Positions 1-58,690 of a DNA stretch of 64,000 bases are shown piece after piece. The stretch comes from Caballeronia sp. dw_19 (lineage in GTDB: Bacteria > Pseudomonadota > Gammaproteobacteria > Burkholderiales > Burkholderiaceae), in contig NZ_JAAVUQ010000001.1 of assembly GCF_018449515.1 (NCBI RefSeq), positions 496,001 to 560,000 of the forward strand, in the 5' to 3' direction. The position numbers and the translations under genes were made by a program. Within the stretch, counting starts at the first letter, position 1. Each line of letters begins with the position of its first letter. The notes beneath the pieces were generated by a model, which made no database searches, had not been told where the DNA came from, and saw nothing but the letters and a program-made list of their open reading frames with translations.

Positions 1-107
1 AACACGCGACGCCAGCTGTTGGACGTCCATACCGACCAGCGGCCGCGCGGCGCCGCACTGGCGACCGCGCGCAACGCATCGATATCGAGCTTGGCCTTCT
101 CGCTCAT
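1..107 (-). CDS. Partial small phage protein, C-terminus beyond window
   Basis: Only the first 35 codons are present, beginning MSEKAKLDIDALRAVASAAP and running off the left edge. The ATG overlaps the TGA of the 79-aa gene upstream (ATGA), so it is probably translationally coupled as the next gene of the leftward operon. A start like this (polar head, then alanine-rich helix and a Gly-Arg-Trp) is common in small phage proteins that count GPW-type motifs, but the fragment is too short for a family call. Confidence 0.55.
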   Translation of the reverse strand, partial: MSEKAKLDIDALRAVASAAPRGRWSVWTSNSWRRV

Positions 108-343
108 GCTGGGCTCCCAGCGCGTACCGGCGCGCAATGGGAAACGCATACGCAGCCGCTTTTTCCTTCGAGCCAAACAACCGCAGTGTGGCCACTGAGG
201 ATCGACGCCTCGGTGCGGGTGCGATATACGACGGGCGTGCTGAGCCCGATCACCTCGGAATACTCAACGGTTTCGCCTACCTGCACGCGCGCGTTGAACT
301 CGTAGACCTCTTTGTACGGATCGGGACGTTTCGGGCGTTTCAT
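104..343 (-). CDS. Small phage protein, 79 aa, unknown function
   Basis: Starts MKRPKRPDPYKEVYEFNARV. I chose the ATG at 343 because it overlaps the stop of the preceding 72-aa gene (ATGA), the pattern of this operon; an in-frame start farther upstream would lie inside that gene. The middle is beta-rich (VQVGETVEYSEVIGL), with a Cys pair near the C-terminus (SGCVCVSHC) that could bind metal or form a disulfide. No function recognised. It belongs to the leftward early operon downstream of the DGR. Confidence 0.6.
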   Translation of the reverse strand: MKRPKRPDPYKEVYEFNARVQVGETVEYSEVIGLSTPVVYRTRTEASILSGHTAVVWLEGKSGCVCVSHCAPVRAGSPA

Positions 344-558
344 GCTGAATGCACCTCGCAATAGTCGGGACCGCCCAGCGACGTGCAGCTGCAGGCCGGC
401 GAGCCTGCGGGCTTCCACGTGGTTTCCAGGCCAATCCCATTCATGTCAATCACGCCGTTCGTGCCGATGGCGTGGTCATAGCCGGCGGCGCGCAGCTTCG
501 CCGAGATCTCTTGATATGCGGGCGCCGACACCTCGAGCGTGGCGATGGTTCGCGTCAT
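340..558 (-). CDS. Small phage protein, 72 aa, unknown function
   Basis: A 72-aa acidic-to-neutral protein beginning MTRTIATLEVSAPAYQEISA. The C-terminus carries Cys and His residues (SPACSCTSLGG, then DYCEVHSA), which suggests a small metal-binding knuckle. Its start overlaps the stop of the 253-aa gene by 4 bp, and its own stop overlaps the next gene, so it is a coupled operon member. I do not recognise a family with certainty. Confidence 0.65.
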   Translation of the reverse strand: MTRTIATLEVSAPAYQEISAKLRAAGYDHAIGTNGVIDMNGIGLETTWKPAGSPACSCTSLGGPDYCEVHSA

Positions 559-1316
559 GGCCTCTCCCGCGATGCGTGTCGGATCAGGGTCATGAACATG
601 TTGTATTGAGCGGTGACCATACAGCCGCCAGCGATATCGGCAATTTGATCTACGGACAGCCCGCTCGCGGCTTGCGCATTGGCTGGCGGTGTAGCGAAGA
701 AAGTCTTTGCCTCGGCTTCCGTAACCAGGTGACGTTCCATGTACATCTGGACCGCAATGTCGCTTACCGGCGCGCTAGCAGCTCGGTCGAGCCGTTCTAT
801 TTCTGCAAGGATCAGTGCGCCGGCCTTGACGAGATTTCGACGCGAGTCTGTGGGTTTGCGCCAAGTTACGGCCCACGGCCACACCGCATCTGCATGCTGG
901 AACATGTTGTAACGCTTCGACGGTGCATTCCCGGACGGCTCTGGGAGCACTGCGGCCGCGGTGTGGATTGCGTAATACGATGCCGCGAGCGCCATCTCGA
1001 AATTGGAATGCTCGTCGTCGTGATCCGGCGTCAAGCCTTCAACGGTCGTTTGCCGAACTCGTTCCGCTAGCACATCACGCGCTGCATCCGTCGTCGCGGC
1101 TTGCGATGCGCCGAGCAACATGCGCCCGGCCTTGATGAACGATTCACTAATACGATCGTCGCTAGGCAAGCACGCGTTTTTCCTGAACTCTTTAAAAACC
1201 CGCGCGATGAGGTCTATATTGGTCGCAGTGGTGGATGCCATTCTGAGTTCGGACACGCCCGCGCCCGCGCTGTTGCTGCCACCACCGGCAGGCGCATCGC
1301 GTTTAGATATGTGCAT
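555..1316 (-). CDS. Phage accessory protein with DDEHSN/WPW conserved C-terminal region
   Basis: 253 aa. The conserved part runs from about residue 100 (TPDHDDEHSNFEMALAASYY) to about 185 (VWPWAVTWRKPTD, then LVKAGALILAEIERLDR). Known: this acidic plus Trp-Pro-Trp plus AEIERLDR arrangement is widespread in small early proteins of lambdoid phages, including the C-termini of Ead/Ea22-like proteins; the function is not established. The ATG overlaps the RT stop (TAATG), so it is coupled to the reverse transcriptase and part of the same transcript. Whether it has any role in the DGR is unknown, and I would assume not. Confidence 0.75.
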   Translation of the reverse strand: MHISKRDAPAGGGSNSAGAGVSELRMASTTATNIDLIARVFKEFRKNACLPSDDRISESFIKAGRMLLGASQAATTDAARDVLAERVRQTTVEGLTPDHDDEHSNFEMALAASYYAIHTAAAVLPEPSGNAPSKRYNMFQHADAVWPWAVTWRKPTDSRRNLVKAGALILAEIERLDRAASAPVSDIAVQMYMERHLVTEAEAKTFFATPPANAQAASGLSVDQIADIAGGCMVTAQYNMFMTLIRHASRERP

Positions 1317-2497
1317 TACTTACTCCCACGATAGGTTTTGGTGAGGTCAAAATTGACGGCATGGTTGCGGCGACGCACAGCGTTCGCAACATGCGCTCGA
1401 TCGTGATGGCCGCTCGGTGCCTGACCGAGCAGTCCGAAGTAACTATTCGAAACTGAAATGAAGTCAGCCTCACAAGTCGTTGTCACCCGACGAATGGCCT
1501 CCTTTACCGTTCGGCGGCGCGTGGAGCGGCTCCACGGCCTGATCACCTGGCCGACAAAATCAACACCGCGATCGATTGGCTGCAGGATCGTTTTCTTTGG
1601 ATTCAGCCGGACGCCGAGGCGCGCAGGAAGAAAGGCGTCGATGTCAGATAGGACTGTGTTCAGCCAGTCCGGCGATTCGTGGAGAAACAGAAAATCATCG
1701 ACGTAGCGAATGTAATGACGCGCGCGGAGCTGATGCTTAACGTGCTGATCGAACACATCGAGCAGAACGTTCGCCCCGAACTGGCTCGGCAGATTGCCGA
1801 TCGGCAGACCGAAATCCGAAGGCTGTTCCATCAGTCGCTTATGCAGCGGCACGCGCGCCATCAACCGGCGGTCGCCGCGGAACTCGAAGTCGGTGCGCGG
1901 GTCGTGCATCAGCACGAGCTCCGTCAGCGCACGCCAGAATGGCTCGCGGATTCGTGATAGCAGCAGCTCGAGCACAATCTTCTTGTCGATGCTGACGAAA
2001 AAATTAGCGAGATCGCATTTCAGGTAATACGCGGGACATGACCAGTTCCGGGTCACCGAACGGATCTTCGCCTCGAGGCGCCGCGCTGCATACAGCGTGC
2101 CGCGGCCCTTGATGCAGGCGCAAGAGTCAGCGATGAACGCGTTTTCGAATCGCGCGTGGATCCGGTTGTACAAAAGGTGATGCACGATCCGGTCGCGGAA
2201 GCTAGCGGCCCAGACCTCGCGAATCTTTGGGCGATCGACGCAAAAGCAGATCGAGGTTCCTGGACGCCACACGCCGGCGTTTAATTCATCGAACAAATCG
2301 ATCAAGTTCGGTTCTCGCTCCTGTTCAAAGAGGAGAGCCGAATAGGTGTTGAGTTTGTGCCGCCTACAGTCAAAGTAGGCGTGCACGAGCTCTCGGAAAG
2401 AAAAGTCAGCATGGCCATCGAAGCGTCCAGCGAATCGATCTGCGGACGGCGACAGCGCCGAACTCGTTGTCCTTGTGGTTCCAGTTCTGGTTGCCAT
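1316..2497 (-). CDS. DGR reverse transcriptase
   Basis: About 393 aa. RT motifs seen in order: a palm segment YYLKCDLANFFVSID (motif A), LPIGNLPSQFGANVLLD, the catalytic RYVDDFLF box, and a Lys-rich LGVRLNPKKT segment. Known: the I/LGxxxSQ form of motif 4 replaces the QG form of group II intron RTs and marks DGR reverse transcriptases. With Avd it copies the template-repeat RNA into adenine-mutated cDNA. The start is uncertain: RT homology begins near HADFSFRELVHAYF, and the only in-frame ATG close upstream is at 2497, inside the template repeat. An ATG-initiated frame to 2677 exists, but it reads across the template region and looks non-coding. A non-ATG start nearer 2430 is possible. Confidence 0.93.
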   Translation of the reverse strand: MATRTGTTRTTSSALSPSADRFAGRFDGHADFSFRELVHAYFDCRRHKLNTYSALLFEQEREPNLIDLFDELNAGVWRPGTSICFCVDRPKIREVWAASFRDRIVHHLLYNRIHARFENAFIADSCACIKGRGTLYAARRLEAKIRSVTRNWSCPAYYLKCDLANFFVSIDKKIVLELLLSRIREPFWRALTELVLMHDPRTDFEFRGDRRLMARVPLHKRLMEQPSDFGLPIGNLPSQFGANVLLDVFDQHVKHQLRARHYIRYVDDFLFLHESPDWLNTVLSDIDAFLPARLGVRLNPKKTILQPIDRGVDFVGQVIRPWSRSTRRRTVKEAIRRVTTTCEADFISVSNSYFGLLGQAPSGHHDRAHVANAVRRRNHAVNFDLTKTYRGSK

Positions 2498-2545
2498 TGT
2501 CGAAGTTCTGGACGTACGCGTTGCTCGGGTTGTCCGGATGCTGCG
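2440..2545 (-). repeat. DGR template repeat (TR), 106 bp
   Basis: On the minus strand this segment reads in one frame as HPDNPSNAYVQNFDNG followed by NQNWNHKDNEFGAVAVR. It is dense in AAC/AAT Asn codons, as expected of a TR in which adenines are the mutable positions. It aligns without gaps to three repeats at the 3' ends of the target genes. The 27 bp at its 3' end (plus-strand 2440-2466) are identical in all four copies and are the likely IMH-type anchor. It lies between avd and the RT body, the usual DGR position, and overlaps the probable RT start. Confidence 0.95.
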
Positions 2546-2695
2546 CCGATTCGTGCTATCTACGTCGCCCCGCTGAAGGCTTGCGCCGATCAGCGGGGTA
2601 ACTGCGCGGGACCATCTTGAACACCGCCAGGTGGTTTCCGTTATGCGCATGTCGGTGGGCTTATGGCCCAGCGGCACGACCAGATAGATGCTCTG

Positions 2696-3076
2696 TCACG
2701 GTCGCCGTGACGGCCGTGAAACGGGCTGCTGTGCGGAATAAATTCTCCATCCCATTGCCTGCTTGCCAAGATCGCTCGCGAGCTCGATTGCATCGGCATA
2801 CGCCGGCATAGAGATCAGGCGAAGGTCAACGCAAACTCCCAGATCGACTTCGACGTCAGTAAGCTCGTCGAGTACCAGGTCGAGGTGAGGAACCTTGTCA
2901 TTGCCGCTTGCCTGATTCGCGTGCCGAATATGTTTCAGGATCGTGCGCGAATGCCCGATCAGCAGCGCGCCATCAACGGATCGATGGTTACGCGGCATAT
3001 GGGCAACAAGCCGGCTGGCGAGCGTCGTAAGCTCTTTGGCCGTCTTGTAGATCTTCAGGGTGGTATGGAGGGCCAT
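2696..3076 (-). CDS. avd: Avd, accessory variability determinant of the DGR
   Basis: 126 aa from MALHTTLKIYKTAKELTTLA. It is entirely helical by eye and matches the four-helix-bundle Avd / 23S-rRNA-intervening-sequence protein pattern: LKIYKTAKEL helix, RNHRSVDGALLIGHS, KVPHLDLVLDELTDVEV, ELASDLGKQAMGW. Known role: an Avd pentamer binds the RT and is needed for TR-primed cDNA synthesis. It sits between the last variable gene and the TR, as in Bordetella phage BPP-1. A TTG at 3094 overlapping the stop of the upstream gene is an alternative start. It lacks an obvious Shine-Dalgarno sequence and is probably coupled to the upstream gene. Confidence 0.9.
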   Translation of the reverse strand: MALHTTLKIYKTAKELTTLASRLVAHMPRNHRSVDGALLIGHSRTILKHIRHANQASGNDKVPHLDLVLDELTDVEVDLGVCVDLRLISMPAYADAIELASDLGKQAMGWRIYSAQQPVSRPSRRP

Positions 3077-3090
3077 GCTGCAAAAATGAT

Positions 3091-3597
3091 TCAATAACTC
3101 AAGGATTTACTGCGGACGGCGACAGCGCCGAACTCGTTGAACTTGTGGGACCAGTACTGGTAGCCATAGTCGAAGAACTGGACGCACGCGTAGCTCGGGA
3201 AGTCCGGAAGCTGCGTTGACGACCATGCGCCCCAACCATCAAGCGCCTCAAGGATCTTGTCGCCCATCGTGACGAAAAGGTGGGTGAGCTCGAAGACGGA
3301 GGGCAAGAAAAAATCCTTGTGCCCGTCGGTATCGAGCGCTGTGAAATGCTTCGCAATTTCGTTGTCCGGATCGGACCTGAGAATGGCGAGAGTATTTGCG
3401 GCGCCGTCAAACAGACTGGTTGCATCGACCACGCTCTCTACCTTTCCCCAGCGTTTTCGCTGAAGCATGTGGGCGATATCGACGATCAGAATCCGGGGCT
3501 CGGAGCCGTCGCGCGGCGTGAAAATTCCGCCGTTGTGGCCACCTTCGCCTTCCCAATAGGTGCCGACCCGCGGCATGTTTTTGATCAAAGTGTTCAT
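3091..3597 (-). CDS. DGR target protein 3 (variable C-terminus)
   Basis: 168 aa. The C-terminal 40 residues are encoded by a variable repeat: SSTQLPDFPSYACVQFFD, then YGYQYWSHKFNEFGAVAVR and a six-residue tail. Known: DGR ligand-binding domains of the C-type-lectin or formylglycine-enzyme-like fold end in such a segment, and the DUF1566/Lcl C-terminal family shares the layout (DGHKDFFLPSVFELTHLF, then WGAWSSTQ). It is paralogous to target 2 over the whole C-terminal half (SDPDNEIA, LFVTMGDKI, WGAW in both). No signal peptide or TM segment is visible. RBS AGGTAG lies 5 nt before the ATG. It is directly upstream of avd in the DGR operon. The ligand is unknown. Confidence 0.9.
   Translation of the reverse strand: MNTLIKNMPRVGTYWEGEGGHNGGIFTPRDGSEPRILIVDIAHMLQRKRWGKVESVVDATSLFDGAANTLAILRSDPDNEIAKHFTALDTDGHKDFFLPSVFELTHLFVTMGDKILEALDGWGAWSSTQLPDFPSYACVQFFDYGYQYWSHKFNEFGAVAVRSKSLSY
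3110..3215 (-). repeat. DGR variable repeat VR3
   Basis: Aligned to the TR without gaps, it has 14 substitutions. Thirteen are at positions that are adenine on the minus-strand TR, and one (opposite TR position 2471) is G to T. The terminal 27 bp are identical to the TR. No stop codon has been introduced in the target frame. It encodes most of the last 40 residues of target 3. Confidence 0.95.
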
Positions 3598-3650
3598 GGG
3601 CTACCTGATGAAATGAGTTGTCGAACTAAATAATCAAATAATCGAATGAC

Positions 3651-4235
3651 TCAGAAAACTCTGCGGACGGCGACAGCGCCGAACTCGTAGTCCTTGCGGT
3701 TCCAGTCCTGGCCGCCATCGCCGAAGCCCTGGACGTACGCGCAGCTCGGGCCGTCCGGATGCTGCTCGCAAATCCACGCACCCCATGTGCCGAGAAACTC
3801 GTGAATCTGATCGCCCAGACTTGCATAGAGCAACGCGCTTTCGAGGCGCGACGGCCAGTGCCAGTCCGTAAAGCCACCGACCCGCAGATCACGAATACGG
3901 TTTGCAATTTCGTTATCCGGATCGGCCTTGAGGAGTGCCTGCATGTTGCTCACGCCGTCCCACCGGCTCGATACGGATGACATAGCTTCGGTCGGCCCGA
4001 ACTTCGCAGGCTTGATCTTCGCTTCCGGCACGAGGGTCACGACGAGGCCATATTGCGATGCTCCATCCCAAGGCGCTGCGACGCCGGCGTACGTTCCTCC
4101 CTGCTCATCCCATACGGAACGTACTGGTGGCGCACTTAACGTCGACACGCGCGCGGACTCCAAACTCAGGGAAGGAGCGTCAATCGATACGCCTGCGGAG
4201 CTGATTGAAATGAGAATGCGATCGTGAGCGCCCAT
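3651..4235 (-). CDS. DGR target protein 2 (variable C-terminus)
   Basis: 194 aa, starting MGAHDRILISISSAGVSIDA. The ATG at 4235 is chosen because it overlaps the stop of target 1 (TAATG) and has a strong AGGAGG 8 nt upstream. The N-terminal third is a low-complexity Ser/Ala segment. The C-terminal half has the DUF1566-like pattern (DLRVGGFTDWHWPSRLE, then GTWGAWICEQ), and the VR encodes HPDGPSCAYVQGFGDGG and the rest to GAVAVR. It is a paralog of target 3, so the pair probably arose by tandem duplication inside the cassette. No export signal is visible. Confidence 0.9.
   Translation of the reverse strand: MGAHDRILISISSAGVSIDAPSLSLESARVSTLSAPPVRSVWDEQGGTYAGVAAPWDGASQYGLVVTLVPEAKIKPAKFGPTEAMSSVSSRWDGVSNMQALLKADPDNEIANRIRDLRVGGFTDWHWPSRLESALLYASLGDQIHEFLGTWGAWICEQHPDGPSCAYVQGFGDGGQDWNRKDYEFGAVAVRRVF
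3661..3765 (-). repeat. DGR variable repeat VR2
   Basis: Thirteen substitutions relative to the TR, all at TR adenines on the minus strand. The 27-bp 3' anchor is unchanged. It ends only 8 bp before the target stop codon. The similarity breaks after 3765, while VR1 and VR3 match one base farther. Confidence 0.95.
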
Positions 4236-4903
4236 TACGCAGCCTCCTGTGTGACGAGCGCGGAATAATCGAATGGACAAAGGATCAAGCTGCGGACGGC
4301 GACAGCGCCGAACTCGCTGCCCTTGCGGACCCAGTCCCGGTAGCCACCGTCGAAGCTCTGGACGTACGCGAAGCTCGGGTAGCCCGGATGCTGCGTAGCG
4401 GACCACATACCGATCGGATCGAATGCCTCGGCGTTGCCAGGCAGAAATAACGGCAGCACGGTCCGCGCTGGAAAATCAGCGGTATAGACGTTTGCCGGTG
4501 GCCAACTGCTCGGATTGGCGCCGCAGTTTCCCTGCCAGTTTTTGTCAGCCGTGGGTTTCGCCGTACGATAAACACGCTCGAGCTGCTGAAGCGCCGGCAG
4601 ACGCCAATCATCGTGTCCACCGATGCGCAGATCCATCGCCCACTGCGCGAGCTTGCTGCCAGCTCTCGCCATTGCCTCGGTGCCAAGTGCTCCGTCGATG
4701 AAATCACAAGCGCTATCGACAGGCTCATAGCTGTCACTCCAGACGATCCGGGCATGATGACCGCCTTCAACCTTCGATGCAGATATCTGCGCCTTCAAAA
4801 GCCCACCGTGCACGTACAGGCCGTTAAAGAAACCGCCTTCAAAGCGATCGCCCACGGAGGGCAGACCGGTGATGACCGCATTAAATTCGGCAATTGCATT
4901 CAT
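4235..4903 (-). CDS. DGR target protein 1, DUF1566-like (variable C-terminus)
   Basis: 222 aa from MNAIAEFNAVITGLPSVGDR; RBS AAAGGA precedes the ATG by 8 nt. It is the most canonical target: the DUF1566/Lcl-C motif LRIGGHDDWRLPALQQLE is followed by MWSATQHPGYPS and the VR-coded SFDGGYRDWVRKGSEFGAVA. Known: DUF1566 and FGE-sulfatase folds are the common scaffolds of DGR-diversified binding proteins. Unlike the other two targets it keeps an 18-residue tail after the VR (LILCPFDYSALVTQEAA). It is the first gene of the DGR cassette and is followed by overlapping target 2. No signal peptide is visible; its location (virion, cytoplasm or surface) is unknown. Confidence 0.9.
   Translation of the reverse strand: MNAIAEFNAVITGLPSVGDRFEGGFFNGLYVHGGLLKAQISASKVEGGHHARIVWSDSYEPVDSACDFIDGALGTEAMARAGSKLAQWAMDLRIGGHDDWRLPALQQLERVYRTAKPTADKNWQGNCGANPSSWPPANVYTADFPARTVLPLFLPGNAEAFDPIGMWSATQHPGYPSFAYVQSFDGGYRDWVRKGSEFGAVAVRSLILCPFDYSALVTQEAA
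4290..4395 (-). repeat. DGR variable repeat VR1
   Basis: Fifteen substitutions relative to the TR, all at TR adenines. The 27-bp anchor is identical. It is the most diverged of the three copies. Most changes convert AAC codons: Asn becomes Tyr, Phe, Ser, Gly, Asp or Val at the eight TR Asn positions. Confidence 0.95.
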
Positions 4904-4993
4904 TTTGGTTCCTTTCAAAGGTGAAGCCGGTCAAGAAATGTCCTAAAAAGAAGCCGCACGTACTGGCCGGCCGGAAAACGTTGCGCGCGGGGT

Positions 4994-5197
4994 CTAGCGC
5001 AACGCCTGAGAGCTTGTGCTGCTGCCACTCTGTGCAATCAGAAGGCGGTCTATCACGACGGCCACATGCTGATTCCGATCGCCGGCCAGCATCTCGACCA
5101 ACGCATCGCACAGCTCGTGTGTCAGCGTGTCGTTCGGCGTGGCCGCGGACGCATACCCACGCGCCTTATGGAGGAATCGGATGCGTGCCGGTGTCAT
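4994..5197 (-). CDS. Small phage protein, 67 aa, unknown function
   Basis: Starts MTPARIRFLHKARGYASAAT, 1 nt after the stop of the secreted-protein gene upstream. It is predicted helical, with a central NDTLTHELCDALVEMLAG segment and a C-terminal VAVVIDRLLIAQSG segment. The length and spacing fit a coupled operon member. The 90 bp between it and target 1 contain no further open frame I would call. Function unknown. Confidence 0.6.
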   Translation of the reverse strand: MTPARIRFLHKARGYASAATPNDTLTHELCDALVEMLAGDRNQHVAVVIDRLLIAQSGSSTSSQALR

Positions 5198-5198
5198 T

Positions 5199-5834
5199 TC
5201 AGTTACCTGAGACGCGGGGCTCGTCGGACCCGGTGCGACCAGCATAGTCGATGCTGTAATTCACGGGCTGGTTGAAGCGGTGATCCATCGTGGCAAGATC
5301 TTCGACGCCCTTGCATGCGGCCGGATCCAATTTCATCATCACGGCGCGCTGGCGATCGCTGTTCAAGCACTGCATGTGCTGGCTGACGTCGAGCAGCTTG
5401 GCGGCGGTTTCGTTCGCTGCTTTCATACCCTTTTCGTCAATACCGGTCTGCGTCGCGATGAGGCGGTATGCCGACGCGGTCTGTTCGGTCTGGCGAGTGT
5501 CCTTGCGCCAATCGCAGCGCTCTCCGTGCACGACGTATGAACCAGCCGCACCAAAGTTGATGATCGATCCGCCGATGGTGCCGAGCATGTCGCAGTTGTC
5601 CTGTGCCGCGCTGTTCGACGGGTTTGGCACGAAAACGGATGGCGCCGCGTCGAGATGCGTCGTGCTGTCACCGGCCGAGTTGAATGTGATGCCCTGTGAG
5701 TTTCCAGCGTTGTTCGCGCCGGCCTGGCTCGCCGTCGTCGCGGTACTGCCCGCATTCGCAGTCGTGTCGGCACGAGCGACCGCGGACATGAAAATCGCTG
5801 TCGCAAAGAAAATCGCGTAGTATTTGAGTTGCAT
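5199..5834 (-). CDS. Secreted phage-encoded protein, 211 aa
   Basis: A clear Sec signal peptide (MQLKYYAIFFATAIFMSAVA, cleavage near ARA-DT) is followed by an Ala/Thr/Asn-rich low-complexity stretch. Next come a hydrophobic glycine-rich segment (MLGTIGGSIINFGAAGSYVV, with Cys 81 just before it and Cys 107 after) and a helical C-terminal part with two more Cys residues. The four Cys suggest disulfides in the periplasm or outside. The family is not recognised. It lies between another secreted protein and the DGR targets in the same transcript, which invites the inference that exported and variable proteins act together, but nothing in the sequence proves it. Confidence 0.75.
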   Translation of the reverse strand: MQLKYYAIFFATAIFMSAVARADTTANAGSTATTASQAGANNAGNSQGITFNSAGDSTTHLDAAPSVFVPNPSNSAAQDNCDMLGTIGGSIINFGAAGSYVVHGERCDWRKDTRQTEQTASAYRLIATQTGIDEKGMKAANETAAKLLDVSQHMQCLNSDRQRAVMMKLDPAACKGVEDLATMDHRFNQPVNYSIDYAGRTGSDEPRVSGN

Positions 5835-5870
5835 GGTCGTACCCCGTCGTATGGCCGTGTGTCGATCGAG

Positions 5871-5898
5871 ACGCCCGAGGCCTTCCCGCCTCGGGCGT
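5871..5898. terminator. Perfect 10-bp hairpin between the two secreted-protein genes
   Basis: ACGCCCGAGG and CCTCGGGCGT flank an 8-nt loop. The T-rich stretch (TTTCCCTTTT) follows on the plus strand, so as an intrinsic terminator it would act rightward. For the leftward operon it has no U-tract and may be only a processing or attenuation structure. Confidence 0.55.
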
Positions 5899-5915
5899 TT
5901 CCCTTTTATGGACGA

Positions 5916-6431
5916 TTAATAGAAGTTCGAACCGTTGGCTTCGATAGCGCCGTTCGCTTCGAACGCGCCGTTTGCGCCCACCGCTTGCGTCGCGAACGTG
6001 CCGGCCGACACCGCGTTGTTCGTAACCGAACCGAAGACCTGGTTGCCGGTGATGATCGAACCGTCAGCTGCCGTGACCGGCACGTTGCCCCACGTCGATC
6101 CGCTGCCCTTGCTCACGCTCGATTGGTCGGTAAAGCTGGATGTCGTAACGCCAGTCGGTGAAACGATGAGCGAGCCGCCGGCGACGCCCGCGGTCTTGCC
6201 GGATGCTGCTTCCTGGAAGCCGCCTGTGCCGAGTACTTCGCCGGCAGTGACAGCCGAGCCGCTCGAAATTGACGATGCGCCGACGTTGCCGCTACCTTGG
6301 AACGTGTTCACTTGCGCGCCGATCTGGCCTTCCACCGAACCGCTTTGCTGGATCTGGTTGCCGTGGGCCATTGCTGCCGACGCTGCGAGTGCCATAACTG
6401 CTGCTGCGATTGCGTTGCGTGCTACTTTCAT
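5916..6431 (-). CDS. Secreted glycine/serine-rich protein, 171 aa
   Basis: Signal peptide MKVARNAIAAAVMALAASAA with cleavage after AMA, then a 145-residue mature part very rich in Gly, Ser, Thr, Val and Asn (GSVEGQIGAQVNTFQGSGNV, then SGSTWGNVPVTAADG). It ends in a short repeat (GAFEANGAIEANGSNFY). This resembles autotransporter-, fimbria- or curlin-like beta-repeat proteins, but I see no definite family. The start at 6431 is chosen because the signal peptide begins there. A phage-encoded secreted protein in the early operon suggests a lysogen or superinfection function; this is inference. Confidence 0.75.
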   Translation of the reverse strand: MKVARNAIAAAVMALAASAAMAHGNQIQQSGSVEGQIGAQVNTFQGSGNVGASSISSGSAVTAGEVLGTGGFQEAASGKTAGVAGGSLIVSPTGVTTSSFTDQSSVSKGSGSTWGNVPVTAADGSIITGNQVFGSVTNNAVSAGTFATQAVGANGAFEANGAIEANGSNFY

Positions 6432-6484
6432 TGAAGCTTCCCCTTCATGTTTACGTGAGTCGGTCACGCTACCGTGCTACGAAA

Positions 6485-6589
6485 TCAGTGAAAAAACGGT
6501 GCTGCTGCGAGGACGAAGAACGCGAACCCGGACACCGCGCATAGGGCACGATTAAAGAGATCGAGAGCGCGCTCGTCGGTATCGGTCAT
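6485..6589 (-). CDS. 34-aa single-TM peptide
   Basis: MTDTDERALDLFNRALCAVS followed by GFAFFVLAAAPFFH. The ATG overlaps the stop of the ParB-family gene (ATGA), and the hydrophobic C-terminal half would span the membrane once. Too short for a family call, but the coupling and composition make it a credible gene. Confidence 0.5.
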   Translation of the reverse strand: MTDTDERALDLFNRALCAVSGFAFFVLAAAPFFH

Positions 6590-8694
6590 GTCCGCACACC
6601 GGTCGGGAACGGCCACGCAGCGGCAGGATCAAGGCCGTTGCCTTTCTTCAGCGTGGGGTGTGCTCGGTCGAACGACGCTTTGCCGGGCGGCACGTCGGCC
6701 GGCTTGCTAGCCACCGTTGGCGCGGGTTTCTTGGCTGTGACTTTCTTCGCCGACGCGGGCACTTTCTTCGCCGCGGGTGTCTTCTTCGCGGCCGGCGCCT
6801 TCAGCGCTGGCTTAGGCTTCGGCAGATCTTTCGGGCGCAGAGGCGTGGGCAGCCAGCCGCTGTCGGCAAGCAGCGCTTCGGCTTTCGTGCCGAGATCACC
6901 CTTCTTCAGTTTGTCCATCTCTTTGATCGCGAGCTCCCCGACGCCAGACTCAGCCAATGCGCCGGTCACGATGTCCTTACGCACCTGGCCGAGATAACTC
7001 TTGACCGTCGGTTGCCACCAGTCGGCCATATTCAAGCCAAGTGTCTGTTCGACTTGCTCAAGCTGGCGCGAATGCTCATTGCCGGCTGTGACGTTGATGC
7101 AGACCGCCGTGCAGTAGGCGAGCACTTCAACGACAAACGTGAGGTCCTGCTGGCCGAGCCAGGCGAAGAGCGTCGTCGGATCCTCCGGGAGTAACTTTTT
7201 CAGTTGCTCACGCCGCGCCTTCAGCTCGGTCGACGCCTTACTGCCTTCAAGATCATCGGCAGTCGTGTGCAGAGTCGATATCTGGTCGGTCGGCAAGATG
7301 TGGACTCCGCCCGAGCCGTAGTAGCCGGAGTAAAAAACCTTAGCGGAAAGCGTTGAGCAAAGTAAATCCAGCGCCACACGCGGTGCGTCGAGCAGATGCG
7401 CCGACATAGCAGCTGATCGATTTGCAGTGAGCTTGCGCAAGAGCGCTTCGCTATGGATCGGCCGGTCGTCGACGGGCTCCTCGCCAGCGGCGATCGCCTT
7501 CGCTTTCTCTGCTGCCTTCACCTGCTTCGGATCGGCCGGCGGAATCATGCCGCGATGAATCTCAAGCGCGCCGCTGCGGTCGAGCCCGATCAGCACACCG
7601 GCCTTCTTCATTTGCCGGTCGGACCACGTCTCGCACAGCGATTGAATTGCGGCGACGCGTGCTTGCTTCGCTGCGATCTCCTGCTCAATCTGCTCGATTT
7701 CGCCATCAGTCAATTCAACTGATTCGTCATCGGGATCCAACTTCTCATTCAGCGTGCCCAACTCAGCTTCGAGATTGGAGATCTCAGCCTTCTCCGCGTC
7801 AGTGAGTGTCCGCACTGTGGGTTTGCTACGGCCGTACGGCTGCGTGACGCTCCAGGTCATTTCCGATACGATCTTCGCGAACGCCCAGCCGTCGGCGCGG
7901 TACTGCTCGGCGATTTGCTCCAGCTTCTTCTGGCCGAGCGATTCGAGCAGTGCAGCGTCGCTGATGTAGCCGCTATTCGGTCCGCCGAAGAGGTCACGCA
8001 CGACTGCGCCGCCGGCGGCCTCATATGCGTCGAGTCCGACGAATTGACCCATGCGGCTCGCCGACGCGCTTGTCTTGTCCTTCATCAACCGCTCACGAAG
8101 GCCGTACGCGTTACGCTGGAAGGTAGGCGCATCATTCCACGCCTTTTCCTGCTGCTTGTGCGAGTCGGCCAGCGTGAAGACCTGGAGCACTTCAAGGGTC
8201 ATCGCACCTTTGCGATACAGATCCACCAGCTTCGGGGAGACCTTGGCTAACTGCAGGCGGCGGCGTACGACGAGAGGCGTCACCCCAAATTGCGCGGCAA
8301 TGTCCTCGATCGGCGAACCCGCGTTGACCATCGTCTTGAACGCATCGAACTCATCGGCCGGGTGCATCGACGCGCGACCACTGTTTTCGGCGACGCTCGC
8401 AGGCAGCGCGTGTTCATCGGTAGTGACCAGGTAGAACACAGGATGATCAGCTGGCACTTTGCCCCGTTGCTCGAGCAGCTTGAACGCGCGATACCGCCGG
8501 CCGCCGCCCACGACGCCGTGCTCACCGTCTTCCGGCACGACGATCATGTTTTGCAGCTGGCCCTGCGAGTGCAGCAAAGCGGCGAGCTCGGAGATGTCGC
8601 CCGTATCTCCGAATCGCGCATTGCGCGGGGAGATATGCAACTGGTTGAGCGGCAGCGAGATGATGCGGCCTTCGATTTTTTGTGCTTTCGGCAT
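6586..8694 (-). CDS. Large ParB/RepB-family DNA-binding protein
   Basis: 702 aa. ParB N-terminal domain at about residues 12-100 (LPLNQLHISPRNARFG, box GGGRRYRAF), then the central HTH (IEDIAAQFGVTPLVVRRRLQ). A coiled-coil region with two acidic stretches lies in the middle (LNEKLDPDDESVELTDGE). A Lys/Ala/Pro-rich tail (about 625-690, AAKKTPAAKK-type repeats) resembles histone H1-like linkers. Known: ParB-type NTPase clamps bind parS and partition DNA; plasmids and some Burkholderiales phages carry this long form. No parA is adjacent, so partitioning is doubtful; transcription or DNA-packaging roles are possible. Member of the leftward early operon. Confidence 0.85.
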   Translation of the reverse strand: MPKAQKIEGRIISLPLNQLHISPRNARFGDTGDISELAALLHSQGQLQNMIVVPEDGEHGVVGGGRRYRAFKLLEQRGKVPADHPVFYLVTTDEHALPASVAENSGRASMHPADEFDAFKTMVNAGSPIEDIAAQFGVTPLVVRRRLQLAKVSPKLVDLYRKGAMTLEVLQVFTLADSHKQQEKAWNDAPTFQRNAYGLRERLMKDKTSASASRMGQFVGLDAYEAAGGAVVRDLFGGPNSGYISDAALLESLGQKKLEQIAEQYRADGWAFAKIVSEMTWSVTQPYGRSKPTVRTLTDAEKAEISNLEAELGTLNEKLDPDDESVELTDGEIEQIEQEIAAKQARVAAIQSLCETWSDRQMKKAGVLIGLDRSGALEIHRGMIPPADPKQVKAAEKAKAIAAGEEPVDDRPIHSEALLRKLTANRSAAMSAHLLDAPRVALDLLCSTLSAKVFYSGYYGSGGVHILPTDQISTLHTTADDLEGSKASTELKARREQLKKLLPEDPTTLFAWLGQQDLTFVVEVLAYCTAVCINVTAGNEHSRQLEQVEQTLGLNMADWWQPTVKSYLGQVRKDIVTGALAESGVGELAIKEMDKLKKGDLGTKAEALLADSGWLPTPLRPKDLPKPKPALKAPAAKKTPAAKKVPASAKKVTAKKPAPTVASKPADVPPGKASFDRAHPTLKKGNGLDPAAAWPFPTGVRT

Positions 8695-8728
8695 GTTCTA
8701 TCCTGATGGTCTGGCTTTTCGTCGCGCT

Positions 8729-9406
8729 TTAGCTGTGCTTCGGGCCTGAGGTCTCGACAAGTTCGAGGAACATCTGCAGCACGCCCATCTGCAGCGCACT
8801 GAGTTCAACGGTCGAGCCTCCGCTGCGAACTTGCATCGCGCCGTCGGGCCACACGGCTACCGAGAAATTGGAAACCGACATGGTCGCGATCGGCAGATAT
8901 TTCGGCTTCTCGTCATCGTCGTGTTTGTCGAGCTCTCGAGCGATAGTCGGCTCGATCGCCGGCGCGCTGGGCGCAGGCGCAGCCTTCTGCTCTTTCGGCG
9001 CGCCGGCTCTGACACGCTTTGTCGGGCGCGATGCCGGCTCAACGCCGACAGAGAACAAATTGCCCAGCCTGGTGATGCGACCATCGGTTAGCGCGGACTT
9101 CAGATACGCCACGATGTCACTCTGATCGATGCCGAGTGCGGTGGCCAGCGCCGTGCGTTTGGCCGTTCGATCGGGGCATGTCGCCAGGAACGCAAGCGCC
9201 TGGTCGACTTTCGTCCCTGTCCGAACTACCGGTTCGGCTGCGAGGTGGACGATCTCCGCAGCCAGCGAACCCGGCTTCAAGATCGGCGCGGCAGGAAATC
9301 CCGTGGACGGCGACGACGGCGCCGTCGGCTCTTCTACGAGGTCAGGCGCCGCGCTGATCGCCGTCGGGAAGAGATTGTTTGCATGCGCTGCAGTCGTGAT
9401 GTCCAT
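8729..9406 (-). CDS. Phage protein, 225 aa, possible winged-helix segment
   Basis: Residues 65-115 look like a small DNA-binding helix set (VDQALAFLATCPDRTAKRTA, then ALGIDQSDIVAYLKSAL, DGRITRLGNLF), similar in style to winged-helix domains of phage regulators. The N-terminus is Pro/Ala/Ser-rich and disordered, and a charged linker (ELDKHDDDEKPKY) separates a C-terminal beta segment. It lies 34 bp upstream of the ParB-family gene, so the two may act on the same DNA. Family not recognised. Confidence 0.65.
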   Translation of the reverse strand: MDITTAAHANNLFPTAISAAPDLVEEPTAPSSPSTGFPAAPILKPGSLAAEIVHLAAEPVVRTGTKVDQALAFLATCPDRTAKRTALATALGIDQSDIVAYLKSALTDGRITRLGNLFSVGVEPASRPTKRVRAGAPKEQKAAPAPSAPAIEPTIARELDKHDDDEKPKYLPIATMSVSNFSVAVWPDGAMQVRSGGSTVELSALQMGVLQMFLELVETSGPKHS

Positions 9407-9423
9407 GGCGTCCGGATCCCGAA

Positions 9424-9849
9424 TCAGTGAGTGGTGTGCGGCTGAACTTCTGCCGAGCTGAAGACGGCGGCAAGGATCCGCGAGAGTGCTGCACTGCTAT
9501 AGCCGATGGCGGCGCGTTCGATCCGGGCGTCGCGTTCGCGGGCCAACTGCAAAGCGTCAAGCCACAAGGCGTCATGCTTGGGCGATTCCAGCCAAACCGA
9601 AACCCAACAGCCAGCGCCGTACGCCGCATCAAACTTTTCCACCGCGCTCAAGCGCGTGCGACTGACGACTTCGGCGGTGTCATGATTTGCGTCGCTCACG
9701 TGGACCGTTGCCATCGCATAGCGGCAATACGGGAGCGTCCACCCATCGAACATCGTCGTAGCCAGGCGCAACCCGTCTTCGCCGAGCGCCACGATGCGAT
9801 GCAGGACATCGGTTGGTCGCGAGTCGTCAAAAATGAAAATGGTCTTCAT
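9424..9849 (-). CDS. Phage protein, 141 aa, unknown function
   Basis: Starts MKTIFIFDDSRPTDVLHRIV with an alternating beta/alpha look, then a region rich in Trp, Tyr and Asp (WTLPYCRYAMATVHVSDA) and a helical C-terminus (ALQLARERDARIERAAIGY). Known families were not recognised. RBS AGGAGAG lies just before the ATG at 9849. Operon context: early leftward genes between ParB-family and zinc-finger-like genes. Confidence 0.65.
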   Translation of the reverse strand: MKTIFIFDDSRPTDVLHRIVALGEDGLRLATTMFDGWTLPYCRYAMATVHVSDANHDTAEVVSRTRLSAVEKFDAAYGAGCWVSVWLESPKHDALWLDALQLARERDARIERAAIGYSSAALSRILAAVFSSAEVQPHTTH

Positions 9850-9904
9850 GAATTCTCTCCTGCAGGTCGTGGCGCGTCGCGCCGAGGATTGTTAAAACAG
9901 CCGC

Positions 9905-13705: not shown

Positions 13706-14242
13706 TCAAAGAGCTTTTTTGCGCCTGCGCGGTTTCGACTGCCTTTCCTCGAACTGGGCTTCTGCGTCGCGTTGCGCGGCGGCGAGGTCTGGTGTCGCCC
13801 CGCGATTCGACTGGCCGACAGTCGCTGCGAAAATCACGCTGAAGGCGCGAAGGGTCTCTTTGGGAACAGCTTTTTCGTGATCAGCATGCGCGATCAATCC
13901 GACCAGCTTTACTGCCTCTCGGCTAAGGCTGTCATCGCGGACAGGCGCCGTCGTGGGTGCACCGTCGCGCGGACCAGCGCCGTGCAAAGTTGTACCGGCC
14001 GCCCGCATCGGCCCTTCTTCATTCCATAGCCACTCCACCCGGACCTTCAGATATTTCGCCAATCCGAACAGCGAAGCCGCTTTCAACTGCTCGGTGGTCC
14101 CCTGAAGCCAGAGCGTCACCGCCGATGACGAAACACCCGCCGCTTTAGCCAGGTCCTTTTGCAAGATCTTCATGCCTAACTCGTCACCGCGTATCGCGGC
14201 AGCGTGATTTAGGCGATCTACGAACGTGGGCAGGGTTTTCAT
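13706..14242 (-). CDS. CI-like repressor, XRE-type HTH
   Basis: 178 aa from MKTLPTFVDRLNHAAAIRGD. HTH: LQKDLAKAAGVSSSAVTLWL (about residues 27-46), followed by LFGLAKYLKVRVEWLWNEEG, the region shared with lambdoid repressors. The C-terminal part lacks a recognisable LexA-type Ser/Lys autoprotease, so induction may need another factor. An alternative start at 14266 would put the start codon inside an operator. Divergent from the Cro-like gene with three operators between them: this is the immunity switch. Confidence 0.85.
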   Translation of the reverse strand: MKTLPTFVDRLNHAAAIRGDELGMKILQKDLAKAAGVSSSAVTLWLQGTTEQLKAASLFGLAKYLKVRVEWLWNEEGPMRAAGTTLHGAGPRDGAPTTAPVRDDSLSREAVKLVGLIAHADHEKAVPKETLRAFSVIFAATVGQSNRGATPDLAAAQRDAEAQFEERQSKPRRRKKAL

Positions 14243-14305
14243 TTGAGTTAGCTTAAATGCTTTCATTTGAGTACACTTGATTTGCAGGTTTGAGTGTGCT
14301 TAAAT
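14242..14305. promoter_or_regulatory. cI-cro intergenic operators and rightward promoter (pR-like)
   Basis: Three similar sites: 14242-14257 (TTTGAGTTAGCTTAAA), 14266-14280 (TTTGAGTACACTTGA) and 14289-14304 (TTTGAGTGTGCTTAAA). A rightward promoter TTGATT (14277-14282), 17-bp spacer, TTAAAT (14300-14305) is covered by the last two. A start about 7 nt after the -10 would coincide with the Cro-like ATG at 14313. The spacing of 23-24 bp is about two helical turns, as in lambda OR. Confidence 0.75.
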
Positions 14306-58630: not shown

Positions 58631-58660
58631 GACGGGGTTCGAATCCCCGTCTCTCCGCCA
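58631..58660 (+). other. attR: 3' end of a tRNA-Ser gene
   Basis: Starts in the T-arm (CGGGG TTCGAAT CCCCG), then acceptor TCTCTCC, G and CCA: the last 30 nt of a Ser tRNA without its 5' part. The other half must be at attL, outside the window, with the integrase. No further phage gene follows. Confidence 0.88.
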
Positions 58661-58690
58661 GAATACGTATCACATTGTCAAGCATCCCCA

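What the first reader, a model, noticed from the sequence alone, without database searches (positions are those of the whole stretch)
1316..4903. Complete three-target diversity-generating retroelement in the CI-controlled early operon
Three variable repeats (4290-4395, 3661-3765, 3110-3215) align gaplessly to one template repeat (2440-2545), with avd and an RT bearing the LPIGNLPSQ DGR motif. Of 42 substitutions counted by hand (15, 13, 14), 41 lie at template adenines, and the 27-bp anchor is identical in all four copies. This is direct evidence of adenine-specific mutagenic retrohoming. Targets of this kind are usually phage tail-tip proteins; here they are three small proteins in the early left operon, far from tail genes.
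Basis: partly seen in the sequence, partly recalled or inferred. Interest (0 to 1): 0.92.

Follow-up and report, generated by a model that had tools for sequence, protein, structure and literature searches.

The report
Phage mutation cassette in early genes
A virus dormant in a bacterium carries a complete machine that rewrites the binding surface of three small proteins, and these proteins sit among the virus's early genes rather than its tail genes, so what they recognise is an open question.

Summary
41 of 42 template/variable differences lie at template adenines. A search blind to the base finds the same in relatives: 2199 of 2309 substitutions at adenines (178 pairs, 79 of 81 loci).

It lies in the leftward operon of a 65.8-kb prophage, between a CI-like repressor and the integrase, about 24 kb from the nearest structural gene identified. 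This is a widespread arrangement: 51 of 81 loci show a co-oriented integrase downstream, 45 of 81 a co-oriented CI-type repressor upstream. The targets are small C-type-lectin-fold proteins without recognisable export signals. Intracellular binders seem likeliest (about 0.6); a virion role (about 0.3) is not excluded.

Not found in the literature searched: a conserved AT-rich element directly 3' of variable repeats, absent after templates.

DGRs, multi-target DUF1566 DGRs and RT-15 are known, and the GenBank record of Burkholderia phage Magia already flags such targets. Verdict: new variant of a known kind.

The parts
4235..4903 (-). target 1 (222 aa), C-type-lectin-fold protein, VR at its C-terminus
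   Evidence: ATG at 4903; Lcl_C PF07603 31.8 bits, below the 34.9 cut-off, but PF07603 precomputed for this protein, P0018; PHROG 4245 E 3e-14; AlphaFold pLDDT 94.2
3651..4235 (-). target 2 (194 aa); its ATG overlaps the stop codon of target 1
   Evidence: Lcl_C 15.5 bits, below cut-off; PHROG 4245 E 4e-13; overlap read from the sequence
3091..3597 (-). target 3 (168 aa)
4290..4395 (-). variable repeat of target 1
   Evidence: 15 of 15 differences at template A
3661..3765 (-). variable repeat of target 2
   Evidence: 13 of 13 differences at template A
3110..3215 (-). variable repeat of target 3
   Evidence: 13 of 14 differences at template A
2696..3076 (-). avd (126 aa)
   Evidence: PHROG 3206 'Avd protein of DGR' E 4e-20 (longer TTG form); NCBIfam DivGenRetAVD E 4e-6, below its cut-off; an ORF of the same cluster in 81 of 81 loci
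2544..2730 (-). RT-15 RNA, leader directly 5' of the template repeat
   Evidence: RF03018, model positions 1-192 of 192, 160.4 bits (gathering 82), E 9.5e-40
2440..2545 (-). template repeat
   Evidence: common partner of the three VRs
1316..2437 (-). DGR reverse transcriptase; start codon uncertain (the ORF stays open up to GTG at 2677, through the template)
   Evidence: PHROG 1423 E 3e-100; LPIGNLPSQ and YVDD; best PDB relative 8ub7 'Reverse transcriptase' E 3e-30; start analysis
3082..3095 (-). AT-rich element 3' of the VR of target 3 (ATTGAATCATTTTT)
   Evidence: motif scan
3626..3639 (-). AT-rich element 3' of the VR of target 2 (ATTTGATTATTTAG)
   Evidence: motif scan
4269..4282 (-). weaker AT-rich element 3' of the VR of target 1 (CTTTGTCCATTCGA)
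   Evidence: score 7.8; place read
13706..14266 (-). CI-like repressor at the head of the leftward genes
   Evidence: PHROG 4 'transcriptional repressor' E 3e-10
58633..58667 (.). right attachment-like repeat; the left copy is at L002 12864 (contig C1:488864), beside the integrase L002 12960-14135
   Evidence: 35-bp exact direct repeat; integrase PHROG 1 E 1e-63

Best explanation
This is an intact DGR of a temperate phage. Shown by sequence: one template repeat, three variable repeats differing from it at adenines, avd, RT-15 leader RNA, DGR-type RT. Inferred from what is known of BPP-1: RT and Avd copy the template RNA into cDNA with errors opposite A, and the cDNA replaces the 3' end of a target gene, placed by the shared 27-nt block. 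Inferred here: the AT-rich element just 3' of each VR marks targets and spares the template, in the role the stem-loop has in BPP-1. The products are small soluble C-type-lectin-fold proteins whose variable residues form a binding surface. As they are encoded between repressor and integrase with recombination and host-takeover genes, carry no recognisable export signal and no tail domain, I take them for intracellular binders made early in infection or in the lysogen, aimed at variable host or rival-phage proteins (defence or immunity contests). The DGR part is near certain (about 0.97); the intracellular role is a reasoned guess (about 0.6).
For: A-specific differences: 41 of 42 here; 2199 of 2309 in a base-blind search of 81 loci; 2178 of 2252 in 85 viral and phage loci (the two sets overlap in part). 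Sister cassettes: 11 of 20 pairs with RT DNA at least 90% identical have identical templates; in 16 of 18 VR comparisons among these, 253 of 260 differences lie at template A (summed). Orthologues of targets 1 and 3: 48% identity at codons with template A in position 1 or 2, 98% and 95% at other VR codons, 69% and 76% outside. Position: integrase co-oriented downstream in 51 of 81 loci, CI/S24 repressor co-oriented upstream in 45 of 81, both in 27 of 57 loci with at least 8 kb on each side; DGR in the repressor-to-integrase side of Magia, Cruim01 and Haboob, and between early genes and integrase in QDWS. No lipobox in 0 of 169 and 0 of 351 target readings. D3 orf68, a relative by profile, is the gene directly after cI.
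Against: No expression, interaction or activity data. The same fold caps tail-like proteins in other phages: BFVD hits of target 3 include an S74-peptidase protein, a collagen-repeat protein and one named tail fiber. 8 of 169 target readings have a moderately hydrophobic N-terminus. The integrase is downstream but on the other strand in 10 of 81 loci, and not found by my profiles in 20 of 81. The window's repressor has no S24 domain hit and lies 9 kb away. Early genes can still feed virions.
Confidence: 0.6

Rival explanations
1. The targets are virion adhesins: small lectin-fold caps added to tail fibres, encoded away from the tail module, changing host range as Mtd does in BPP-1.
For: Viral DGR targets of several clades are mostly tail proteins (PMC8144416, section 9). 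The fold occurs at the ends of tail-like proteins. Two to five variable proteins per phage would suit several receptors.
Against: Early operon, co-oriented with recombination genes and integrase. No VR in the tail genes of the own genome or in the held stretches of Magia, Cruim01, Haboob and QDWS, which are parts of the records. The 14 target readings over 240 aa include frame errors and none I read shows a tail domain (not searched by profile).
Confidence: 0.3
2. The targets are shown on the surface of the lysogen (adhesion or superinfection exclusion at the envelope), as the Legionella Lcl domain is in its host.
For: Closest solved fold is the Lcl C-terminal domain. Two ORFs with signal-peptide-like starts lie just upstream in the same direction (5199-5834, 5916-6467).
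Against: No lipobox and few hydrophobic N-termini in the targets; the two upstream ORFs were found beside the DGR in only one other locus, L095.
Confidence: 0.07
3. A relic: the cassette was active in the past and no longer works here.
For: No activity data; the start codon of the RT is unclear.
Against: RT motifs, avd, RT-15 RNA and all three target frames are intact; templates stay identical while VRs differ in sister cassettes; the start-codon oddity is shared by most relatives.
Confidence: 0.03

Closest known systems
Bordetella phage BPP-1 DGR (mtd-avd-TR-brt)
   Same: Order target, avd, TR, RT; adenine-specific variation; related RT (29% identity in tblastn); lectin-fold variable domain (Mtd's fold is from PMC6328139 passages).
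   Different: Three targets, none a tail protein by sequence; RT-coding homology begins about 20-44 nt after the TR instead of after a long spacer; no stem-loop of 6 or more perfect pairs after the window's VRs, an AT-rich element instead.
Burkholderia phage Magia (MT701587) DGR
   Same: RT 68% identical; three VRs; Avd-like gene; targets between repressor and integrase, two annotated 'lectin fold domain protein ... potential DGR target'.
   Different: Different phage; one target lies just after the repressor, 6 kb from the others.
Multi-VR DUF1566 DGRs, e.g. Stenotrophomonas sp. SKA14 with six VRs (PMC6642488, passages)
   Same: One DGR, several DUF1566 (Lcl_C) targets.
   Different: The passages I saw do not discuss a phage early operon.
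Rfam RT-15 RNA (RF03018)
   Same: Full-length match directly before the TR.
   Different: Nothing; the window is a member.
Pseudomonas phage D3 orf68
   Same: Distant relative of the targets (hhalign probability 99, 26% identity); first gene after cI.
   Different: No Pfam match; no RT annotated in the 30 kb of D3 that I looked at.

Membership tests
Diversity-generating retroelement (DGR) | RT of the DGR group with (I/V/L)GxxxSQ in place of QGxxxSP (motif rule recalled) | tested here: met
   LPIGNLPSQ in the ORF; PHROG 1423 E 3e-100; 60 of 110 matching phage records covered at least 80%, BPP-1 among the 40 listed
Diversity-generating retroelement (DGR) | TR and VR differ at template adenines | tested here: met
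   41 of 42; 2199 of 2309 in relatives, base-blind
Diversity-generating retroelement (DGR) | Avd or another accessory protein | tested here: met
   PHROG 3206 E 4e-20; Pfam bAvd and NCBIfam DivGenRetAVD match below their cut-offs
Diversity-generating retroelement (DGR) | VR at the C-terminus of a C-type-lectin-fold target | tested here: met
Diversity-generating retroelement (DGR) | mutagenic retrohoming shown in vivo | not testable with these tools
   comparative evidence only
BPP-1-type DGR (subtype, not the family) | inverted repeat (stem-loop) just 3' of the VR | tested here: not met
   longest perfect stem in 60 nt after the three VRs is 3-4 pairs; 67 of 169 VRs in relatives have 6 or more, against 6 of 77 TRs and 6 of 169 shuffles
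BPP-1-type DGR (subtype, not the family) | target is a tail-fibre protein | tested here: inconclusive
   no tail domain or tail neighbourhood, but the fold caps tail-like proteins elsewhere
Lcl_C / DUF1566 (PF07603) | score above the Pfam gathering cut-off | tested here: inconclusive
   31.8, 15.5 and 17.1 bits against 34.9; PF07603 precomputed for target 1 and for an orthologue of target 3
RT-15 RNA (RF03018) | score above the Rfam gathering cut-off, full length | tested here: met
   160.4 against 82 bits, 1-192 of 192
Defence reverse transcriptase (DRT) | DRT-specific model as clear best match | tested here: not met
   PADLOC best is the generic RT model (E 5.5e-30); DRT models weaker; NCBIfam Drt models far below cut-off

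The most novel reading that the evidence does not exclude
A widespread clade of temperate-phage DGRs does not diversify tails at all: it supplies the early and immunity operon with a repertoire of two to five hypervariable intracellular lectin-fold binders, which contest host defences or rival phages, a phage counterpart of an adaptive receptor system. It uses its own target mark, an AT-rich element beside the anchor instead of a stem-loop, and travels as an exchangeable cassette.
Probability: 0.3. Interest if true: 0.92.

Novelty: new variant of a known kind. Interest (0 to 1): 0.62.

Why it matters
Phage DGRs are mostly explained by host-range switching through tail fibres. A clade whose targets sit in the repressor-to-integrase operon suggests that phages also hypermutate proteins that act inside the cell, which makes 'what else do DGRs diversify' directly testable in culturable phages such as Haboob, Cruim01 and Magia. 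The AT-rich element gives a concrete, removable candidate for how such a DGR tells target from template.

Tried and rejected
Hypotheses dropped or weakened. (a) A hidden fourth VR in tail genes: none with the anchor in the own genome. (b) A BPP-1-like stem-loop after the window's VRs: not seen. (c) Per-event bias in the inserted base (VR of target 3: 11 of 13 A>T; of target 2: 11 of 13 A>G): overdispersed across 169 VRs against loose shuffles (chi2 456, permuted mean 335, sd 24), but weak once locus, codon phase and AA context are matched (p 0.018), so not claimed. (d) Translation of the RT-15 stretch as part of the RT: the frame is open through the whole TR in 136 of 157 loci, but another frame is open in 117 and the third in 78, and there is no codon periodicity upstream (entropy 0.67, 0.72, 0.66), so not claimed. 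(e) Defence RT: rejected. (f) N-terminal fusions as a functional hint: the longest readings include wrong-frame ORFs; no clue.

Rows dropped before counts: and all that builds on it (in part), VRs had to have at least 85% of differences at A and at least 5 of them, so those A-counts are biased by choice. One search left out 4 of 81 loci without such VRs. In one search, two of 18 comparisons with identical templates (13 of 22 and 18 of 42 at A; VR or flanks out of register) are left out of the 253 of 260; with them it is 284 of 324; pairs share members. The genome and viral sets overlap (for instance L018 and L152), so repeats the motif test without near-identical loci. The 209 lectin-like ORFs include ORFs spanning the TR; 40 of 209 had no VR. 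The search for related loci kept 80 of 108 and 80 of 446 confirmed relatives, the best ones.
Full report
OBSERVATION. The window is contig C1:496001-560000 of a 9.06-Mb genome. Its genus is probably Caballeronia: the one other genus member with a related RT (G004) matches at the same contig coordinates as Caballeronia calidae L012; this is inference. On the - strand, in order of transcription, stand target 1 (4903-4235), target 2 (4235-3651), target 3 (3597-3091), avd (3076-2696), RT-15 RNA (2730-2544), TR (2545-2440) and the RT (to 1316). A chance origin is out of the question (about 1e-21).

IS IT ADENINE-SPECIFIC IN OTHER LINEAGES? I fetched 80 genomic relatives of the RT (the best of 108). 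A search for repeats with uniform scoring, blind to which base differs, found 178 pairs in 79 of 81 loci (window included): 2199 of 2309 substitutions at template A, while A makes up 5380 of 17969 template sites. Viral contigs and four annotated phages gave 2178 of 2252 in 182 pairs, 80 of 85 loci; the sets overlap in part. Of 20 pairs of loci with RT DNA at least 90% identical, 11 have identical templates; in 16 of their 18 VR comparisons 253 of 260 differences lie at template A (sums). The two left out (13 of 22, 18 of 42) look out of register. So VRs keep being rewritten while the template is held constant. In orthologues of targets 1 and 3 identity is 48% at codons with A in template positions 1 or 2, 98% and 95% at the other VR codons, 69% and 76% outside the VR (10 and 12 orthologues). 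This is comparative evidence; present activity of this copy is not shown.

WHERE IT LIES. A 35-bp direct repeat that looks like a tRNA 3' end stands at C1:488864 and at window 58633, giving a prophage of 65.8 kb. The integrase is at its left end (L002 12960-14135) and a CI-like repressor at window 13706-14266; the genes between run leftward and include the DGR and a ParB-like gene (6586-8694). Terminase (28786), portal, major head, sheath, tape measure, baseplate and tail-fibre genes lie to the right, on the other strand; the nearest one identified is about 24 kb from the DGR. In the 81 loci, profiles built from the loci themselves find an integrase in 61 (51 downstream co-oriented, 10 downstream on the other strand, 1 upstream on the other strand) and a CI/S24 repressor upstream co-oriented in 45; exonuclease (13 of 13 loci that have it), SSB (8 of 8) and Gam (9 of 9) lie upstream co-oriented (family names). 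Of 57 loci with at least 8 kb on both sides, 42 have the integrase and 35 the repressor so placed, 27 both. In the annotated phages Magia, Cruim01 and Haboob the DGR stands between repressor and integrase; in QDWS the integrase follows and the repressor lies outside the stretch I looked at. Relatives of the targets without an annotated RT nearby stand in the same operon side in Medea1 and PAN70; in U9 the match lies in an early region but on the strand opposite to the annotated gene. Phage D3 orf68, directly after cI, is a distant relative; it is probably the D3 protein that the fold search found (Q9MBK5, same length). In 14 of 45 loci with a repressor the first lectin-like ORF begins within 2.5 kb of it, the place where lambda keeps rex (recalled).

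A CANDIDATE TARGET MARK. Directly 3' of VRs an AT-rich stretch follows that is missing after TRs: 'ATTTAA' within 50 nt of 113 of 192 VRs and 0 of 84 TRs (RT identity at least 66%), and in 45% of 169 VRs against 0.7% of 275 stretches after other stop codons. A 14-nt motif (consensus ATTTAATCATTCAT) learned on viral loci scores above 6 in 168 of 179 VRs of the other loci, 0 of 81 TRs and 4-6 of 179 shuffles. With only test loci below 85% RT DNA identity to any training locus it is 138 of 149 VRs, 0 of 67 TRs, 6 shuffles. In the window it stands at 3082-3095 and 3626-3639 and, weakly, at 4269-4282. GC-rich hairpins occur in addition in many Pseudomonas loci (67 of 169 VRs with 6 or more perfect pairs). 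In BPP-1 an inverted repeat lies there (PMC12875486, passages). That the AT-rich element guides retrohoming is inference.

MODULE EXCHANGE. The sister phage L095 matches the window at 85.5% over 4940-8398 and 83.8% over 1-685, but avd-RT only at 69.9% and the targets not at all in DNA; its template differs and it has two targets. The cassette seems to have been replaced as a unit.

OPEN: THE RT START. RT homology begins mostly 19-44 nt after the TR. In 147 of 157 loci no in-frame ATG, and in 105 of 157 no ATG, GTG or TTG, lies between TR end and 30 nt into the homology. An in-frame ATG inside the TR exists in 87 of 157 loci. Translation may start in or before the template, or at an unusual codon; not settled.

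LITERATURE. Seen: PMC8144416 passages and section 9: viral targets of clades 1, 4 and 6 are mostly tail proteins. PMC6642488 passages: multi-VR DGRs and DUF1566 as the commonest named target domain. PMC11792537, PMC10053308, PMC6328139, PMC12875486, PMC3091744: passages. PMC10907252: search listing only. Eight searches showed me no paper on DGRs in the early operon or on the AT-rich element; the library lacks most subscription journals, and I opened seven papers in part only. The Magia record itself already names two targets as potential DGR targets.

VERDICT. DGR with adenine-specific diversification: about 0.97. Targets acting inside the cell: about 0.6; virion adhesins about 0.3; lysogen surface about 0.07; relic about 0.03. 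New variant of a known kind.

Noticed in passing
window 3082-3095, 3626-3639, 4269-4282 (-): Conserved AT-rich element 3' of VRs, absent after TRs, in this DGR clade.
   Followed up: yes
window 2544-2730 (-): Full-length RT-15 RNA (RF03018) between avd and TR.
   Followed up: partly
window 2340-2680 (-) and relatives: No usual start codon for the RT between TR and RT homology in most loci; the frame often runs open through the template.
   Followed up: partly
L095 against window 1-9875: Sister phage with conserved flanks and an exchanged DGR cassette.
   Followed up: partly
window 5199-5834 and 5916-6467 (-): Two ORFs with signal-peptide-like starts just upstream of the DGR; no Pfam or PHROG match; found beside the DGR of one other locus only.
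   Followed up: partly
all VRs, AA doublets: Outcomes at AA doublets are uneven: GC 7 and CC 5 against TA 656 and GG 459; selection or mutational dependence, not separated.
   Followed up: no
L177 24081-24641 (-), phage D3 orf68: Distant relative of the targets directly after cI in phage D3.
   Followed up: partly
window 3110-3215 and 3661-3765 (-): One VR is nearly all A>T, another nearly all A>G; a per-VR bias is only weak across loci once context is matched.
   Followed up: yes
window 4235-4237 (-): The stop codon of target 1 overlaps the start codon of target 2 (TAATG), suggesting translational coupling.
   Followed up: no
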